From: Candidatus Poseidonia sp.
GTDB taxonomy: Archaea; Thermoplasmatota; Poseidoniia; Poseidoniales; Poseidoniaceae
Reading direction: 5' to 3'
NCBI GenBank assembly: GCA_016779705.1
Contig: JADHNB010000005.1
Coordinates: forward strand, 1 to 36,058
Length of the DNA: 36,058 nucleotides
Shown: positions 2,690-25,193 of the stretch, piece after piece
Layout of the letters: every line of letters starts with the position of its first letter
How positions within the stretch are numbered: position 1 is the first letter of the stretch
Translations under genes and position numbers: made by a program
The notes under the pieces: model-generated
The model's input: only the letters and a program-made list of their open reading frames with translations
Databases searched by the model: none
What the model was told of the DNA's origin: nothing

Positions 2690-2766
2690 GGGCGATTAGG
2701 GTAGTCTGGATATCCTTCCGGCCTTCGGAGCCGGAGACGGGGGTTCGAATCCTCCATCGCCCGCCA
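2690..2766 (+). tRNA. tRNA-Arg (anticodon TCG) with genomically encoded CCA
   Basis: Acceptor GGGCGAT/ATCGCCC (7 bp), anticodon stem CCGGC/GCCGG with loop CTTCGGA (TCG at 34-36), T arm GGGGG-TTCGAAT-CCTCC, discriminator G then CCA. Confidence 0.93.
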
Positions 2767-2776
2767 TCCTACGCAG

Positions 2777-3322
2777 TTACTCACCGTTGGCCAGTTGGAA
2801 CAGAAACGCCCGTTGGCGGGGGTTGATGGCGTGCGGACTGCGCTCCTCACGCACCCGCTGAATCGCTTCCGCCATGTCCATGCCACGGAGCCACAAGTAC
2901 ATCGAAGCGAACGTGCCCGCTCGAGAAAGCCCACCCATGCAGTGAACCACCACCACCTCACCCTCAGGGATGCTGGCGATGATGTGCTGGAGAACCGGTG
3001 TTCCCCGGTCCATCCACGCATCGGTGGGCGCCGTCGTGTCAGGTAGCGGTAGATGGTCCCAGGCCAGGCCAAATCGCCTCGCTTCTTCACCGAGGTTCTC
3101 GACGCGGAGCATGGTCATGTCTTCTACCGTGATGAGGCTGATGAGCCGATTGACGCCCATGTCCACCAAGGCTTGGAGGTCGACGTCGAGTTGGCGGTCC
3201 CAGCTCCCGGTTGAGGCCACGGGTTGGTACTTGCCGGGGCACAGCGTGATGCCGAGTTGGCCTTGGTCGCCCTCAAGGGGAAGCCAAGAGATGTAGAGCG
3301 GATGGGTGGTGCTCGTGCGCAC
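2777..3322 (-). CDS. Dual-specificity/CDKN3-like protein phosphatase
   Basis: P-loop VHCMGGLSRAGT (HCX5R); N-term MRTSTTHPLYISW..CPGKYQP..SWDRQLDVDLQAL; probable GTG start abutting the upstream TGA. Confidence 0.8.
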   Translation of the reverse strand: MRTSTTHPLYISWLPLEGDQGQLGITLCPGKYQPVASTGSWDRQLDVDLQALVDMGVNRLISLITVEDMTMLRVENLGEEARRFGLAWDHLPLPDTTAPTDAWMDRGTPVLQHIIASIPEGEVVVVHCMGGLSRAGTFASMYLWLRGMDMAEAIQRVREERSPHAINPRQRAFLFQLANGE

Positions 3323-3649
3323 TCAAACACCCCCGTTGCCGTAGCGGTTACCATAAGCCCACATGGTTCGCCACACATCAAGGCACACGTCGTGGTATTC
3401 GTCATCGTCAATGCTGTTCTTGAAGTTGTCATACGGCATGCTCAACAGGTACTCACCCACGGCTTGCTGAACGACCTCACGCGGCAACACCGACCGGTAA
3501 GGATAGTCAGCGGCGCGCATGAACACCACCTGAGCATTGGGAAACACCGCTTGGATGTGATCAGGGTGACGCGCTCGCACAAGGAGGTCGTCGGGCTGAT
3601 GACGGTGGGCCACGATGGACAAGAAGCCGCCGGAAACGAAGAGCCACAT
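3323..3649 (-). CDS. Conserved small protein of unknown function (MWLF..FLSIV...YDNFK type)
   Basis: 108 aa; ATG directly abuts the TGA of the upstream gene; motifs MWLFVSGGFLSIV, VRAR, YPYR, YDNFK, YHDVCLDVWRTM. Confidence 0.7.
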   Translation of the reverse strand: MWLFVSGGFLSIVAHRHQPDDLLVRARHPDHIQAVFPNAQVVFMRAADYPYRSVLPREVVQQAVGEYLLSMPYDNFKNSIDDDEYHDVCLDVWRTMWAYGNRYGNGGV

Positions 3650-4123
3650 TCAGGCCACCTCCATGCCATAGGAATCTTGGGTTCCGTGAAGCGGTTTCGT
3701 TTCATCGGTACCGGCCTCGAGCGAGGCTTCGGTCCCATGGGTTAGGGCGAAAATGAAGCCTTCGGTTGAAACCAACACCGCATACGGGGCAATTTGGATG
3801 ATGCAGCCAACGGCGTGAACGGTCTCTGCAAAGATGGCGAGGTTGAGAAGGGCTTTGGGGTCACGGTCGACGAGGAGACAACGTAGAACGCCTTCGGCAA
3901 CCGTTTGTACCACAAACCCAAGTTCGGTAAAGCTGGCAAGCGACCCCACTCGCTCCTCCGATGTGAGAAACATGACGAGCTGTTTGTTTTGATGAGCGTG
4001 GGCGAAGTTGATTTCATCTTGGAGTAAGGATGGGAGAAGCGTGAGGTCCCTTTCACCTCCTTCTGCCTCATGGGTATTCAGGGGGCTGGCTACAATGTGT
4101 CGGCTGTCTTTATCGTTCTGCAC
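3650..4123 (-). CDS. Hypothetical protein, first gene of the phosphatase operon
   Basis: 157 aa ORF with GTG start, zero-gap coupling to the downstream ORF; no family recognised. Confidence 0.55.
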   Translation of the reverse strand: MQNDKDSRHIVASPLNTHEAEGGERDLTLLPSLLQDEINFAHAHQNKQLVMFLTSEERVGSLASFTELGFVVQTVAEGVLRCLLVDRDPKALLNLAIFAETVHAVGCIIQIAPYAVLVSTEGFIFALTHGTEASLEAGTDETKPLHGTQDSYGMEVA

Positions 4124-4202
4124 ACCTTACTAAAGATTCACAAAATTTGGGCTCTCGTGCCCCTCTCACAGGAATAATAAAGTGTACCCACATCCAATCC
4201 AC

Positions 4203-5162
4203 ATGGACCTCCATCCCGAACTGTCAAAGCCAACGCTAACCACGGTTCAAACACATCAAACAGGGTATTTTTATTACCCAAGAAAGCAAACCAATGGCTG
4301 GAAAACGATCAAATCAATTGTTCATCCAAAATGGTTTGAGCAAAAGGAGTTCACAAAACAATACACCATCTCCTTGGACAGTCGAGTTGTTGCCGCCTTG
4401 GACCAAGAACATGGTCGACGATGGACATCAAAGGAACCAAAGTGGGTGATGAAGAAAGATGACCCTGAAGGGGTTGGGTTCTGGCTCTACCATGTACGTA
4501 CGGGGATGAAAGGGAAAGAGCGATGGGTCCGCTCTGAGGACATCCATCGGTTTCGGGACAAACAAAGCAAAGTAGGGCGGCCAGCAAGCGGCACGGCGTA
4601 CAAAGTCCGGCGAGCCGTTTGGAGAACCCTTGTATCTTCGAATTTGTCTTCAGCCTTGAAGCACTATGGGCACCGAACACGAGGGAGAAAAGAGGTGATT
4701 TCGCTTCGTCTCCCCGACCTTTCCCTTGCCGTTTTTGAGTTATTGAAAGCACATTTTCCATTTACAGAGGAGCATGTTCATGTCCTTACTGCTTGGTCTA
4801 AATTGAAGAATGTCAATTGGTTTGAGTCGCACGATGTGAATCCGCTTCTTTATGCCGAGCGAACGGAGCAATTGGCATTTTTGAAGCATGTGTCGGATAC
4901 GAGTTGGAAGGCAGTGCTTGCTGGATTAATTGAGGGTCGGTATGCTGATCAAACGGTTGTTTTGGACAATGTACAGCAAAAAGAAGAGAACGGTTTGTTA
5001 CTATTGAATGGCCATTTGGGAAGCAATGTCACAATTCCAGAGTATAAGTCTGAGTTGGCAGAAGCCTGTAAGCATTGCAAGAGTAAGGCTTGGACGTATT
5101 GCAAACCTAACGAGTTCGGATTTGCAAGATGCGGAGATTGTGGGCTTGTCATCGATGTTTGA
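4203..5162 (+). CDS. AT-rich orphan protein with C-terminal zinc ribbon
   Basis: ORF 4182-5162 (GTG at 4182, ATG at 4203). TATA-like GAATAATAAA at about 4171-4180 lies about 27 nt before ATG 4203. C-terminus CKHCKSKAWTYCKPNEFGFARCGDCGLVIDV. Base composition clearly more AT-rich than neighbours. Confidence 0.75.
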   Translation: MDLHPELSKPTLTTVQTHQTGYFYYPRKQTNGWKTIKSIVHPKWFEQKEFTKQYTISLDSRVVAALDQEHGRRWTSKEPKWVMKKDDPEGVGFWLYHVRTGMKGKERWVRSEDIHRFRDKQSKVGRPASGTAYKVRRAVWRTLVSSNLSSALKHYGHRTRGRKEVISLRLPDLSLAVFELLKAHFPFTEEHVHVLTAWSKLKNVNWFESHDVNPLLYAERTEQLAFLKHVSDTSWKAVLAGLIEGRYADQTVVLDNVQQKEENGLLLLNGHLGSNVTIPEYKSELAEACKHCKSKAWTYCKPNEFGFARCGDCGLVIDV

Positions 5163-5240
5163 GTTCCTCTGGAAGAGGGACCCCACGGACATCCCGACCG
5201 GCCTTTATGGTCTGCCGCAACCAACTACAATACGAGCAAC

Positions 5241-5492
5241 ATGAGAGGAAAAGGTTCCCAAAAGAAAGCTCGCTTGGAGCGGTTGAAGAGCGAAATCGTC
5301 GACTACGTGTCGAACACCCCCGGCGCATCGGCGGCGGACATCGTCGCCTTCTTGTCCAACGAACGCAAGATGCGAAACCACGGTTTGACCACCCGCAAAG
5401 TCGGGTTGTTCATTCCCTTGCACCTGGCCGATTTGATCTGTTTCCGTTTGGACGCTTCGACGGGCAAGCGAATCTACCACGCAGCGGCCTGA
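5241..5492 (+). CDS. Small conserved-looking protein, possible winged-helix fold
   Basis: 83 aa; LKSEIVDYVSNTPGASAADIVAFLSNERKMRNHGLTTRKVGLFI resembles an HTH pattern. Confidence 0.6.
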   Translation: MRGKGSQKKARLERLKSEIVDYVSNTPGASAADIVAFLSNERKMRNHGLTTRKVGLFIPLHLADLICFRLDASTGKRIYHAAA

Positions 5493-23813: not shown

Positions 23814-25193
23814 CTACTTGATGTCAATGCGTTGGAGCCAGCGAGCGCACAAACGAGCCTGATGCTCAATCGACAACCACGCTTCAAGGCGAATCGGTCC
23901 GCCATCGATGCGGTCCACACGCTCCACCATCCCGCGTTCGTAAACGTCGGCGACGATGCGCTCACTCGCCTCATCCGTTGCCGTCGTCGGCGGGTTCACG
24001 ACCACGGTGACGGGGGCTCCGTACAAGCGCTCACGTACCGTCCGTTGCAACGCTTCCAAGCCGAGGTCCTGATGGGTCGAAATGCAGGTCGGAGAGGCAA
24101 ATCCAAATTCGGCGACCGCGGCTTTGGCGTTGGACAACCCAACCTCATCCACCGCATCGATTTTGGTCAACACCAGGTGCAAGGAAGGCAGTTCGGACCC
24201 CAACGTTTCGTCGTGATCTTGGCGTTCCATCACCTCTCGACGGGTGGTTTCCACCTTTCGTCGAAGTTCCGGGAGAGAGTCAGAGGCGTCGACCAAGATG
24301 AGAGTTAAATCAGCATCTATTGCTTCCGCAATAGTTGCTTTAAATGCTGTTAAAGTAGCATTTGGTATATTGTCAATAAATCCGATGGTGTCCACCAACA
24401 AAATTCGGGGGCTTTTCTCCATCCTTCCCACCGTGGTTTCCAGCGTGGAGAACAATTTGTCTTCGACCAACACCGATTTTCCCGATAATCGTTGAAAGAG
24501 CGAGGATTTGCCAGCGTTCGTGTAGCCGACAAAGCCCACGGTCATGGCCCCGCTTCTCGTCCGTTGCCGTCGGTGCTCACGCTGTGCGTTGACGTGGTTG
24601 CGCTGGCGACGGCGAAGGTTCGTCAATTCACGATTGAGGTTTGCCAGCACGTTTTGCAGGGCCGTGACACCGCCCCCACCGTAACCGGCTCGCTCGCCCG
24701 TGGTTTGTTGATTCGCCAATTCACGCAAGACGGTCCGGTCCGATTGAAGGCGTGCAATTCGAACCTGCGTGCGTGCTTCGACCGACGAAGCGTGGGAGGT
24801 GAACAAGGAGAGCAACAATCGTACCCGGTCCCAGATTTCCACACCGAGCAAGGCATTGACGCCGACCAACTGCCGGGCGGTGGCGTTGGTATGGAGCAGA
24901 ACAAGGTCCACGCCTTGCCAAGGGTGGCCGTCCACCAAACTTGCGAATTCCTCCGCAATGTCCAACAAGCGACCTTTGCCGAAATACGCCCGAGGGTCCA
25001 CTCGTCCCACCTGCGTCAACGTTTCGACGATGGTGATGCCCATCGTGCGGGCCAAATCGACCATTTCCTGCGTGTTCTCATCGCCTCGAACGAGCAAAAT
25101 GGCGCGGCGCCCTTCGTGCGAGGTTCGCCCCTCACCGAGGACCACCCCGCCCGCACCCGCCAACACGTACGGGTCATCGAGCGGCTGCGCCAT
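23814..25193 (-). CDS. hflX: GTPase HflX
   Basis: DPRAYFGKGRL, GERAGYGGGGVTALQ, VGFVGYTNAGKSSLFQRLSG, DTIGFIDNIPN, VLTKIDAVD; ATG 25193 has a TATA-like element centred 24.5 nt upstream. Confidence 0.93.
   Translation of the reverse strand: MAQPLDDPYVLAGAGGVVLGEGRTSHEGRRAILLVRGDENTQEMVDLARTMGITIVETLTQVGRVDPRAYFGKGRLLDIAEEFASLVDGHPWQGVDLVLLHTNATARQLVGVNALLGVEIWDRVRLLLSLFTSHASSVEARTQVRIARLQSDRTVLRELANQQTTGERAGYGGGGVTALQNVLANLNRELTNLRRRQRNHVNAQREHRRQRTRSGAMTVGFVGYTNAGKSSLFQRLSGKSVLVEDKLFSTLETTVGRMEKSPRILLVDTIGFIDNIPNATLTAFKATIAEAIDADLTLILVDASDSLPELRRKVETTRREVMERQDHDETLGSELPSLHLVLTKIDAVDEVGLSNAKAAVAEFGFASPTCISTHQDLGLEALQRTVRERLYGAPVTVVVNPPTTATDEASERIVADVYERGMVERVDRIDGGPIRLEAWLSIEHQARLCARWLQRIDIK
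24317..24363. repeat. Two adjacent perfect inverted repeats inside hflX
   Basis: CTATTGC-TTCC-GCAATAG (24317-24334) and AAATGCT-GTTAAAGT-AGCATTT (24342-24363). Confidence 0.85.

What the first reader, a model, noticed from the sequence alone, without database searches (positions are those of the whole stretch)
4075..5165. AT-rich orphan gene with C-terminal zinc ribbon embedded in GC-rich chromosome
Seen: composition and codon usage change sharply from about 4.1 to 5.16 kb. The single ORF (ATG 4203) is lysine/tryptophan-rich with a CxxC-X14-CxxC ribbon (CKHCKSKAWTYCKPNEFGFARCGDCGLVIDV), and no family is recognised. Inference: recently acquired gene, possibly viral, plasmid or defence-related.
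Basis: partly seen in the sequence, partly recalled or inferred. Interest (0 to 1): 0.6.

Follow-up and report, generated by a model that had tools for sequence, protein, structure and literature searches.

The report
Variable gene in tRNA-linked archaeal cassette
The odd AT-rich gene is not a lone newcomer: it is the most changeable member of a four-gene cassette that marine Group II archaea keep, swap between species and lose next to a tRNA gene, and it probably makes a DNA-binding protein that controls that cassette.

Summary
The AT-rich ORF is real: GC 46.6% and GC3 47%, against 60% and 69.5% for the other window genes. It has a C-terminal TFIIB-like zinc ribbon and matches no family above a curated cut-off. 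The spacing is CxxC-X17-CxxC, not X14, and the start may be GTG 4182. It is not an orphan. Homologues occur in 22 Poseidoniales genomes. In all 21 that can be judged, the homologue is transcribed divergently from a small acidic protein gene, usually followed by a 108-aa gene and a dual-specificity phosphatase. In this genus the cassette sits between tRNA-Arg(TCG) and an 83-aa gene. Nine of 22 assembled loci hold it, ten are empty, and three "empty" ones keep a remnant of this gene, so loss explains at least those. Alleles are exchanged between species: cassette genes share 70-83% of third positions where flanking genes share 34-49%. The AT-richness is a family trait. The intergenic region carries a subtype-specific motif found once per carrier genome. 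Best reading: a basic DNA-binding protein that regulates the cassette's divergent promoter (shown: cassette, exchange, motif; inferred: function). No viral or named defence relative was found.

The parts
2690..2766 (+). tRNA-Arg (anticodon TCG), left border of the variable site
   Evidence: ARAGORN and Rfam RF00005; the same tRNA borders the site in filled and empty relatives
2777..3322 (-). DSP: dual-specificity / PTP-like phosphatase with a Cys-x5-Arg active-site motif (HCMGGLSR), last gene of the leftward operon; its stop lies 10 bp from the tRNA 3' end
   Evidence: Pfam PF22784 PTP-SAK E 1e-12; cassette linkage
3323..3649 (-). orf3323: conserved 108-aa protein, no Pfam family; relatives also on a few large phages and plasmids
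3650..4123 (-). orf3650: acidic (pI 4.7), hypervariable 157-aa protein; its conserved C-terminal GMEVA also encodes a Shine-Dalgarno-like GGAGGTG for orf3323, so the two are probably translationally coupled
   Evidence: sequence
4157..4185 (+). Intergenic motif GTGCCCCTCTCACAGGAATAATAAAGTGT in the divergent promoter region; candidate operator or promoter element
   Evidence: 27/29 identical to the same place in G001 (local score 48, shuffled maximum 21); the 19-mer CACAGGAATAATAAAGTGT occurs once in G000 and once in G001 at 0 mismatches, nowhere else in six genomes at up to 3 mismatches
4182..5162 (+). The gene in question (FAM, long zinc-ribbon subtype): 326 aa from GTG 4182 or 319 aa from ATG 4203; basic (pI 9.4); family found in 22 Poseidoniales genomes
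5067..5159 (+). C-terminal TFIIB-type zinc ribbon (residues 289-319 counted from ATG 4203), present only in the three long homologues
5177..5209 (+). Conserved GGGACCCCACGGACATCCC element kept at filled and empty sites: right border of the variable site
   Evidence: alignment of 10 empty and 12 filled or partial sites
5241..5492 (+). Conserved 83-aa gene, right flank (82-95% identical to ten relatives), not part of the cassette

Best explanation
The gene is the divergent, fast-changing member of an exchangeable accessory cassette of Poseidoniales: FAM(+) facing orf3650-orf3323-DSP(-), with further variable genes at the DSP end in some genomes. In this genus the cassette sits in the slot between tRNA-Arg(TCG) and a conserved 83-aa gene. 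Alleles are swapped between species there by recombination, and cassettes are lost there. The gene product is a small basic DNA-binding protein that most likely binds the divergent intergenic region through a subtype-specific motif and sets transcription of its own gene and of the orf3650-orf3323-phosphatase operon. In the long subtype a TFIIB-like zinc ribbon may contact the archaeal RNA polymerase or DNA. Shown here: the cassette and its linkage, the common site, allele exchange, remnants at three empty sites, purifying selection, the basic charge, and the single-copy motif that follows the FAM subtype. Inferred: DNA binding, the regulatory role, the purpose of the zinc ribbon, and that the operon works as a phosphatase-based accessory (stress or conflict) system.
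For: Linkage: in 21 of 21 assessable FAM-bearing genomes the gene faces orf3650 divergently (G170 is cut by its contig end). Homology of long and short forms: hhalign E 2e-5 over the N-terminal half; the A1 profile finds short forms in G199 and G241 at 2e-6 to 6e-6; shared invariant residues P10, H41, E46, R73, G125, R136, P171, L173, A176, W235, E244. Site: filled and empty versions of the tRNA-Arg/83-aa interval. Loss: remnants of the FAM C-terminus at the same position in empty G010 (E 7e-6) and G013 (E 5e-5), weaker in G009 (E 0.05); G017 has no FAM and a split DSP. Exchange: G021 and G023 share 0.74, 0.83 and 0.70 of third positions in FAM, orf3650 and orf3323, against 0.34-0.49 in three flanking core genes; sister species G001 and G023 (GlmM 93%, two flanking proteins 96-100% identical) carry FAM alleles alignable at only 24-32%. 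Selection: dN/dS 0.06-0.15 for FAM in close pairs. DNA-binding traits: pI 8.9-10.8 in 20 of 20 aligned homologues, while orf3650 is acidic in 18 of 19. Motif: AATATTRTATCGSTTTT occurs once, in the FAM/orf3650 gap, in all six short-FAM genomes drawn; the only other hit among 29 genomes is a one-mismatch match inside an unrelated gene of G025. G011, with a short FAM but an orf3650 of another type, carries the short-FAM motif, so the motif follows FAM. The viral structure-library matches include an annotated ribbon-helix-helix protein of an archaeal filamentous virus, though not significantly.
Against: No fold was assigned: no significant PDB or viral match for the models searched, the long model is moderate (pLDDT 74.6, pTM 0.65), and a test for an internal repeat, as a tandem ribbon-helix-helix protein would have, was negative. 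The motif lies next to FAM's own start, so physical linkage, promoter or translation signals could explain its conservation without FAM binding it. The zinc ribbon is absent from 17 of 20 aligned homologues, so it is not part of the core function. No expression data exist.
Confidence: 0.5

Rival explanations
1. FAM and orf3650 are a toxin and its acidic antidote, or an effector with its immunity protein, kept by addiction or used against mobile elements; the hypervariability comes from arms-race selection.
For: Basic FAM against acidic orf3650; both far more variable than orf3323 and DSP (mean identity in the genus: FAM 46%, orf3650 39%, orf3323 68%, DSP 69%, flanking genes 78-87%); patchy gain and loss.
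Against: They are divergent, not an operon. orf3650-orf3323 pairs persist without FAM in several genomes (G065, G079, G060, G219). FAM and orf3650 subtypes are not strictly paired (G011). dN/dS is low between close pairs. No PADLOC match.
Confidence: 0.2
2. The cassette is a shortened or satellite form of larger integrated elements of the same archaea that carry a PRTRC-like ThiF gene and a T7-type RNA polymerase; FAM is their replication or transcription initiator.
For: orf3650 and orf3323 lie beside a 1,282-1,429-aa T7-type RNA polymerase in five genomes (G161, G235, G173, G336, G339), and in three of them (G173, G336, G339) it occupies the divergent position that FAM holds elsewhere; in G241 FAM lies near a gene shared with the larger elements.
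Against: In the genus of the window no polymerase, ThiF gene or integrase is in the cassette. No homology between FAM and the polymerase was seen.
Confidence: 0.15
3. FAM is a DNA- or RNA-modifying or cleaving enzyme of unknown fold; the phosphatase and orf3323 act in the same pathway.
For: Invariant H41, E46, R73, R136, W235 and E244; no known DNA-binding fold recognised.
Against: The invariant residues are few and scattered and form no known catalytic motif.
Confidence: 0.12
4. A recently acquired single gene, perhaps from a virus or plasmid.
For: Low GC; the FAM and orf3650 alleles here are unlike those of close relatives, while orf3323 is 88% identical to that of G007.
Against: The gene always comes with orf3650; homologues are at the same site in nine genomes of the genus; remnants at three empty sites; low GC is shared by homologues; no viral relative found.
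Confidence: 0.06

Closest known systems
TFIIB/TFB and other TFIIB-type zinc-ribbon proteins (Pfam PF08271)
   Same: Ribbon motif ending CxxCGLVI; E 0.04 in the window protein and 4e-5 in the homologue of G046
   Different: Ribbon is C-terminal and present only in the three long homologues; no Pfam cyclin-fold match; weak match below the curated cut-off
Charybdis elements of Poseidoniales (PMC12324425)
   Same: Accessory DNA of the same archaeal order, sometimes integrated next to tRNA genes, mostly unknown genes
   Different: About 4.6 kb circular elements with about ten genes and a double-Greek-key protein, described from IMG/VR; FAM and orf3650 queries found no related IMG/VR contig, orf3323 one distant relative
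PRTRC (ParB-related, ThiF-related) plasmid cassette
   Same: Larger elements carrying the same orf3650-orf3323 pair have a ThiF protein matching TIGR03736 PRTRC_ThiF (E 1e-12 and 4e-17)
   Different: ThiF scores are below the curated cut-off; no other PRTRC model matched; the window cassette has no ThiF gene
tRNA-linked integrative elements such as tycheposons (from general knowledge; papers located)
   Same: Variable DNA at the 3' end of a tRNA gene in a marine microbe
   Different: No integrase in the cassette, no clear flanking repeat, and several cassettes of other genera lie at non-tRNA sites
Swiss-Army-Knife PTP-type phosphatases (Pfam PF22784)
   Same: The operon's DSP matches above the cut-off (E 1e-12)
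   Different: Here linked to orf3323, orf3650 and FAM; substrate unknown

Membership tests
TFIIB/TFB transcription factors | TFIIB zinc ribbon | tested here: inconclusive
   Below the curated cut-off in the window protein (13.9 of 29 bits) and in the G046 homologue (23.4 of 29 bits)
TFIIB/TFB transcription factors | Ribbon at the N-terminus followed by two cyclin folds | tested here: not met
   Ribbon at residues 289-319 of 319; no cyclin-fold match in Pfam; no whole-fold match
Ribbon-helix-helix DNA-binding proteins | Beta-alpha-alpha unit recognised by sequence or fold | tested here: inconclusive
   Predicted strand-helix-helix order twice; one non-significant viral match annotated RHH (E 1.6); no Pfam RHH match; internal repeat test negative
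Anti-phage defence systems | Match to a known or candidate defence protein | tested here: not met
   No PADLOC-DB match at E<=1 for any cassette protein
Toxin-antitoxin pairs | Toxin and antitoxin genes side by side in one operon and inherited together | tested here: not met
   Divergent genes; orf3650 persists without FAM; subtypes not strictly paired
Toxin-antitoxin pairs | Toxicity and neutralisation | not testable with these tools
   Needs expression tests
Integrase-bearing tRNA-targeting elements | Integrase gene and duplicated attachment site | tested here: not met
   No integrase seen among the ORFs of the interval; no convincing flanking repeat in the window; only an 11-nt imperfect tRNA-like stretch in G023
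Charybdis elements | Shared genes with IMG/VR Charybdis contigs | tested here: not met
   No IMG/VR relative of FAM or of one orf3650 by peptide-pattern scans; the double-Greek-key protein itself was not searched for
PRTRC system | ThiF, ParB-like and the other PRTRC proteins | tested here: not met
   No ThiF in the window cassette; in larger relatives ThiF only, below cut-off

The most novel reading that the evidence does not exclude
FAM is an element-private transcription initiator for archaea: it occupies the slot, divergent from orf3650-orf3323, that in sibling elements of the same order holds a T7-type single-subunit RNA polymerase, and it gives each cassette subtype its own promoter through a matching DNA motif.
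Probability: 0.12. Interest if true: 0.8.

Novelty: new variant of a known kind. Interest (0 to 1): 0.5.

Why it matters
Marine Group II archaea are abundant in the surface ocean and uncultured, and little is known of how their accessory DNA moves. This locus is a compact, countable case: one tRNA-linked slot with species that keep, exchange or lose a small cassette of undescribed protein families. If FAM reads a subtype-specific motif, it gives a private regulator-operator pair testable in vitro without culturing the host. The linked elements with T7-type polymerases would be an unexpected transcription system in archaeal chromosomes.

Tried and rejected
Viral origin: scans of viral contigs with FAM (long protein, short alignment), orf3650, orf3323, the large polymerase and ThiF gave nothing except one distant orf3323 relative. 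These scans use exact peptide patterns and can miss divergent relatives. Defence family: no match. Known fold: Foldseek against the PDB found only zinc-ribbon fragments for the long model and nothing for the short one. Tandem ribbon-helix-helix: suggested by the secondary-structure order, but profile comparison of the two halves gave probability 1%. Attachment-site repeats: nothing convincing in the window; a shared tRNA end in G023 is only 11 nt and imperfect. The profile A4 could not be used to scan genome contigs. Papers: no description of this cassette found; Charybdis elements were considered and not supported.

Full report
What is there. The window is a contig (C15) of a 68%-complete genome of the order Poseidoniales, marine Group II archaea; several relatives of the same genus are recorded as Poseidonia. 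The ORF at 4203-5162 stands out: GC 0.466 and GC3 0.473 against 0.600 (sd 0.024) and 0.695 (sd 0.042) for the other window ORFs. It ends in a TFIIB-like zinc ribbon with spacing CxxC-X17-CxxC, not X14. It has no match above a curated cut-off in Pfam, and none in NCBIfam, PHROGs or PADLOC.

It has relatives. A search of relatives found a 39% identical homologue in G001 (same genus) and one in another genus, G046. G001's copy lies at the same locus. Shorter ORFs (172-194 aa) in the same position in other genomes are homologous by profile comparison (E 2e-5), and intermediate sequences bridge the two. I call the family FAM here. The class-wide profile searches (244 genomes with the long forms, 340 with the short) give 22 FAM-bearing genomes, all Poseidoniales. 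A phylum-wide sample of 243 genomes added none outside the order.

The unit is a cassette. In all 21 FAM-bearing genomes where it can be judged, FAM faces an orf3650 homologue divergently; orf3323 and a DSP phosphatase usually follow in the same operon. Over the order as sampled, orf3650 is in 37 of 244 genomes and orf3323 in 32 of 194, so the pair also occurs without FAM. The conserved C-terminal GMEVA of orf3650 encodes a Shine-Dalgarno-like GGAGGTG directly before the orf3323 start, so the two are probably translationally coupled.

The site. In the genus the cassette lies between tRNA-Arg(TCG) and a conserved 83-aa gene. Of 22 genomes where the locus is assembled enough to judge, 9 hold a FAM cassette (G000, G001, G007, G011, G020, G021, G023, G027, G029), 2 hold the cassette without FAM (G008, G017), 1 has other cargo (G024) and 10 are empty. 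In three empty sites the sequence just before the right border encodes a remnant of the FAM C-terminus (for example ERWEPAVCRLIQLH in G010, E 7e-6). G015's empty site and some filled ones share a sequence at the tRNA end that matches, by eye, the end of a cassette gene in G007. So loss explains at least those sites; whether all empty sites lost a cassette is not shown. G017 lacks FAM and has a split DSP, as expected for decay. In other genera the cassette is elsewhere, sometimes by other tRNA genes: tRNA-Arg(TCT) in the single-contig genome G039, and tRNA-Ala in G134.

Exchange. Between G021 and G023, FAM, orf3650 and orf3323 share 74%, 83% and 70% of third codon positions, while GlmM, the hexapeptide protein and the 83-aa gene share 34-49%. 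DSP (42%) behaves like the core, which places a breakpoint inside the cassette. Conversely, sister species G001 and G023 are 93-100% identical in those flanking proteins but carry FAM and orf3650 alleles alignable at only 23-32%. In the window, orf3323 is 88% identical to that of G007 while FAM is 22-25%. Mean identity within the genus falls from the flanks (87%, 78%) through DSP and orf3323 (69%, 68%) to FAM and orf3650 (46%, 39%). dN/dS in close pairs is 0.06-0.15 for FAM, so the protein is under purifying selection. NG86 estimates are saturated for distant pairs and are used here only as contrasts.

AT-richness is a family trait. FAM is the lowest-GC gene of the four cassette genes in all nine genomes of the genus and lower than orf3650 in nearly all others, including hosts of about 40% GC. 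It is therefore poor evidence for a recent foreign origin.

Mechanism. All 20 aligned FAM proteins are basic (pI 8.9-10.8); orf3650 is acidic in 18 of 19. The divergent gap carries a conserved motif that depends on the FAM subtype. For the long form it is a 29-mer with 27 identities between G000 and G001 (score 48, shuffled maximum 21), whose 19-nt core occurs once in each of those two genomes and not at all in four others with up to 3 mismatches. For the short form it is AATATTRTATCGSTTTT, once each in the six short-FAM genomes drawn and otherwise only as a one-mismatch hit inside an unrelated gene. G011 carries a short FAM with an orf3650 of another type and has the short-FAM motif, so the motif follows FAM. 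The simplest explanation is that FAM binds its own divergent promoter region. The alternative, that the motif is only a promoter or translation signal travelling with FAM, is not excluded. Models (pLDDT 75 and 81) gave no significant fold match; the best viral-library match has E 0.012 and probability 0.99 to an unnamed 106-aa protein, and an annotated archaeal-virus ribbon-helix-helix protein is seventh. A direct test for a tandem repeat was negative.

Wider links. In other Poseidoniales the orf3650-orf3323 pair lies beside larger genes: a T7-type RNA polymerase of 1,282-1,429 aa (G161, G235, G173, G336, G339), a ThiF protein with a PRTRC_ThiF match, and a helicase similar to the Mokosh protein MkoA (G179). 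PF00940 polymerases occur in 21 of 332 genomes of the class and in none of 14 control genomes; some shorter ones may come from phage contigs binned with the genome. orf3323 has 32-47% identical relatives on eight phages and 29-42% on seven plasmids. The cassette thus draws on genes of the mobile pool, but I found no virus or plasmid that carries FAM.

Verdict. The gene is not an orphan and need not be recent. It is the variable, probably regulatory, member of an undescribed exchangeable cassette. The cassette and its exchange are well supported (about 0.9); the regulatory function is my best inference (about 0.5).

Noticed in passing
L183 2860-6744, L186 7279-11565, L187 1263-5462, L195 6585-10430, L196 249-4115: T7-type single-subunit RNA polymerases of 1,282-1,429 aa (PF00940, E 1e-43 to 1e-50 where scanned with hmmscan) beside orf3650-orf3323 in contigs of Poseidoniales; the family is found in 21 of 332 genomes of the class and none of 14 controls.
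   Followed up: partly
L195 (G161:C20), L196 (G235:C28), L197 (G336:C12), L198 (G339:C6): Elements of about 10 kb with the polymerase, Cys-rich 404-489-aa proteins in some, a PRTRC-like ThiF, a 165-180-aa protein, orf3650 and orf3323 (with DSP and a calcineurin-like phosphatase in L195 and L196); in L195 one end abuts a gene that looks like ftsZ.
   Followed up: partly
L185 1462-4119 (G179): An 886-aa superfamily 1 helicase similar to the Mokosh defence protein MkoA (PADLOC E 5e-101) occupies the position divergent from orf3650.
   Followed up: no
L124 and L125 (Aeromonas phage ST4, Yersinia phage fHe-Yen8-01): Phage relatives of orf3323 lie three genes downstream of an annotated ADP-ribosyltransferase gene; in ST4 a NUDIX hydrolase gene is directly upstream.
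   Followed up: no
L047, just upstream of the 83-aa gene (G023): A stretch ATCGCCCGCCA resembling the tRNA-Arg 3' end borders extra cargo between FAM and the 83-aa gene, a possible old attachment site.
   Followed up: partly
Contig ends in G134, G160, G043, G192, G046 and others: Many assemblies break inside or beside the cassette, as expected if alleles differ within a population.
   Followed up: no
window 24001-24750: A second, milder GC dip (0.52-0.53) not examined further.
   Followed up: no
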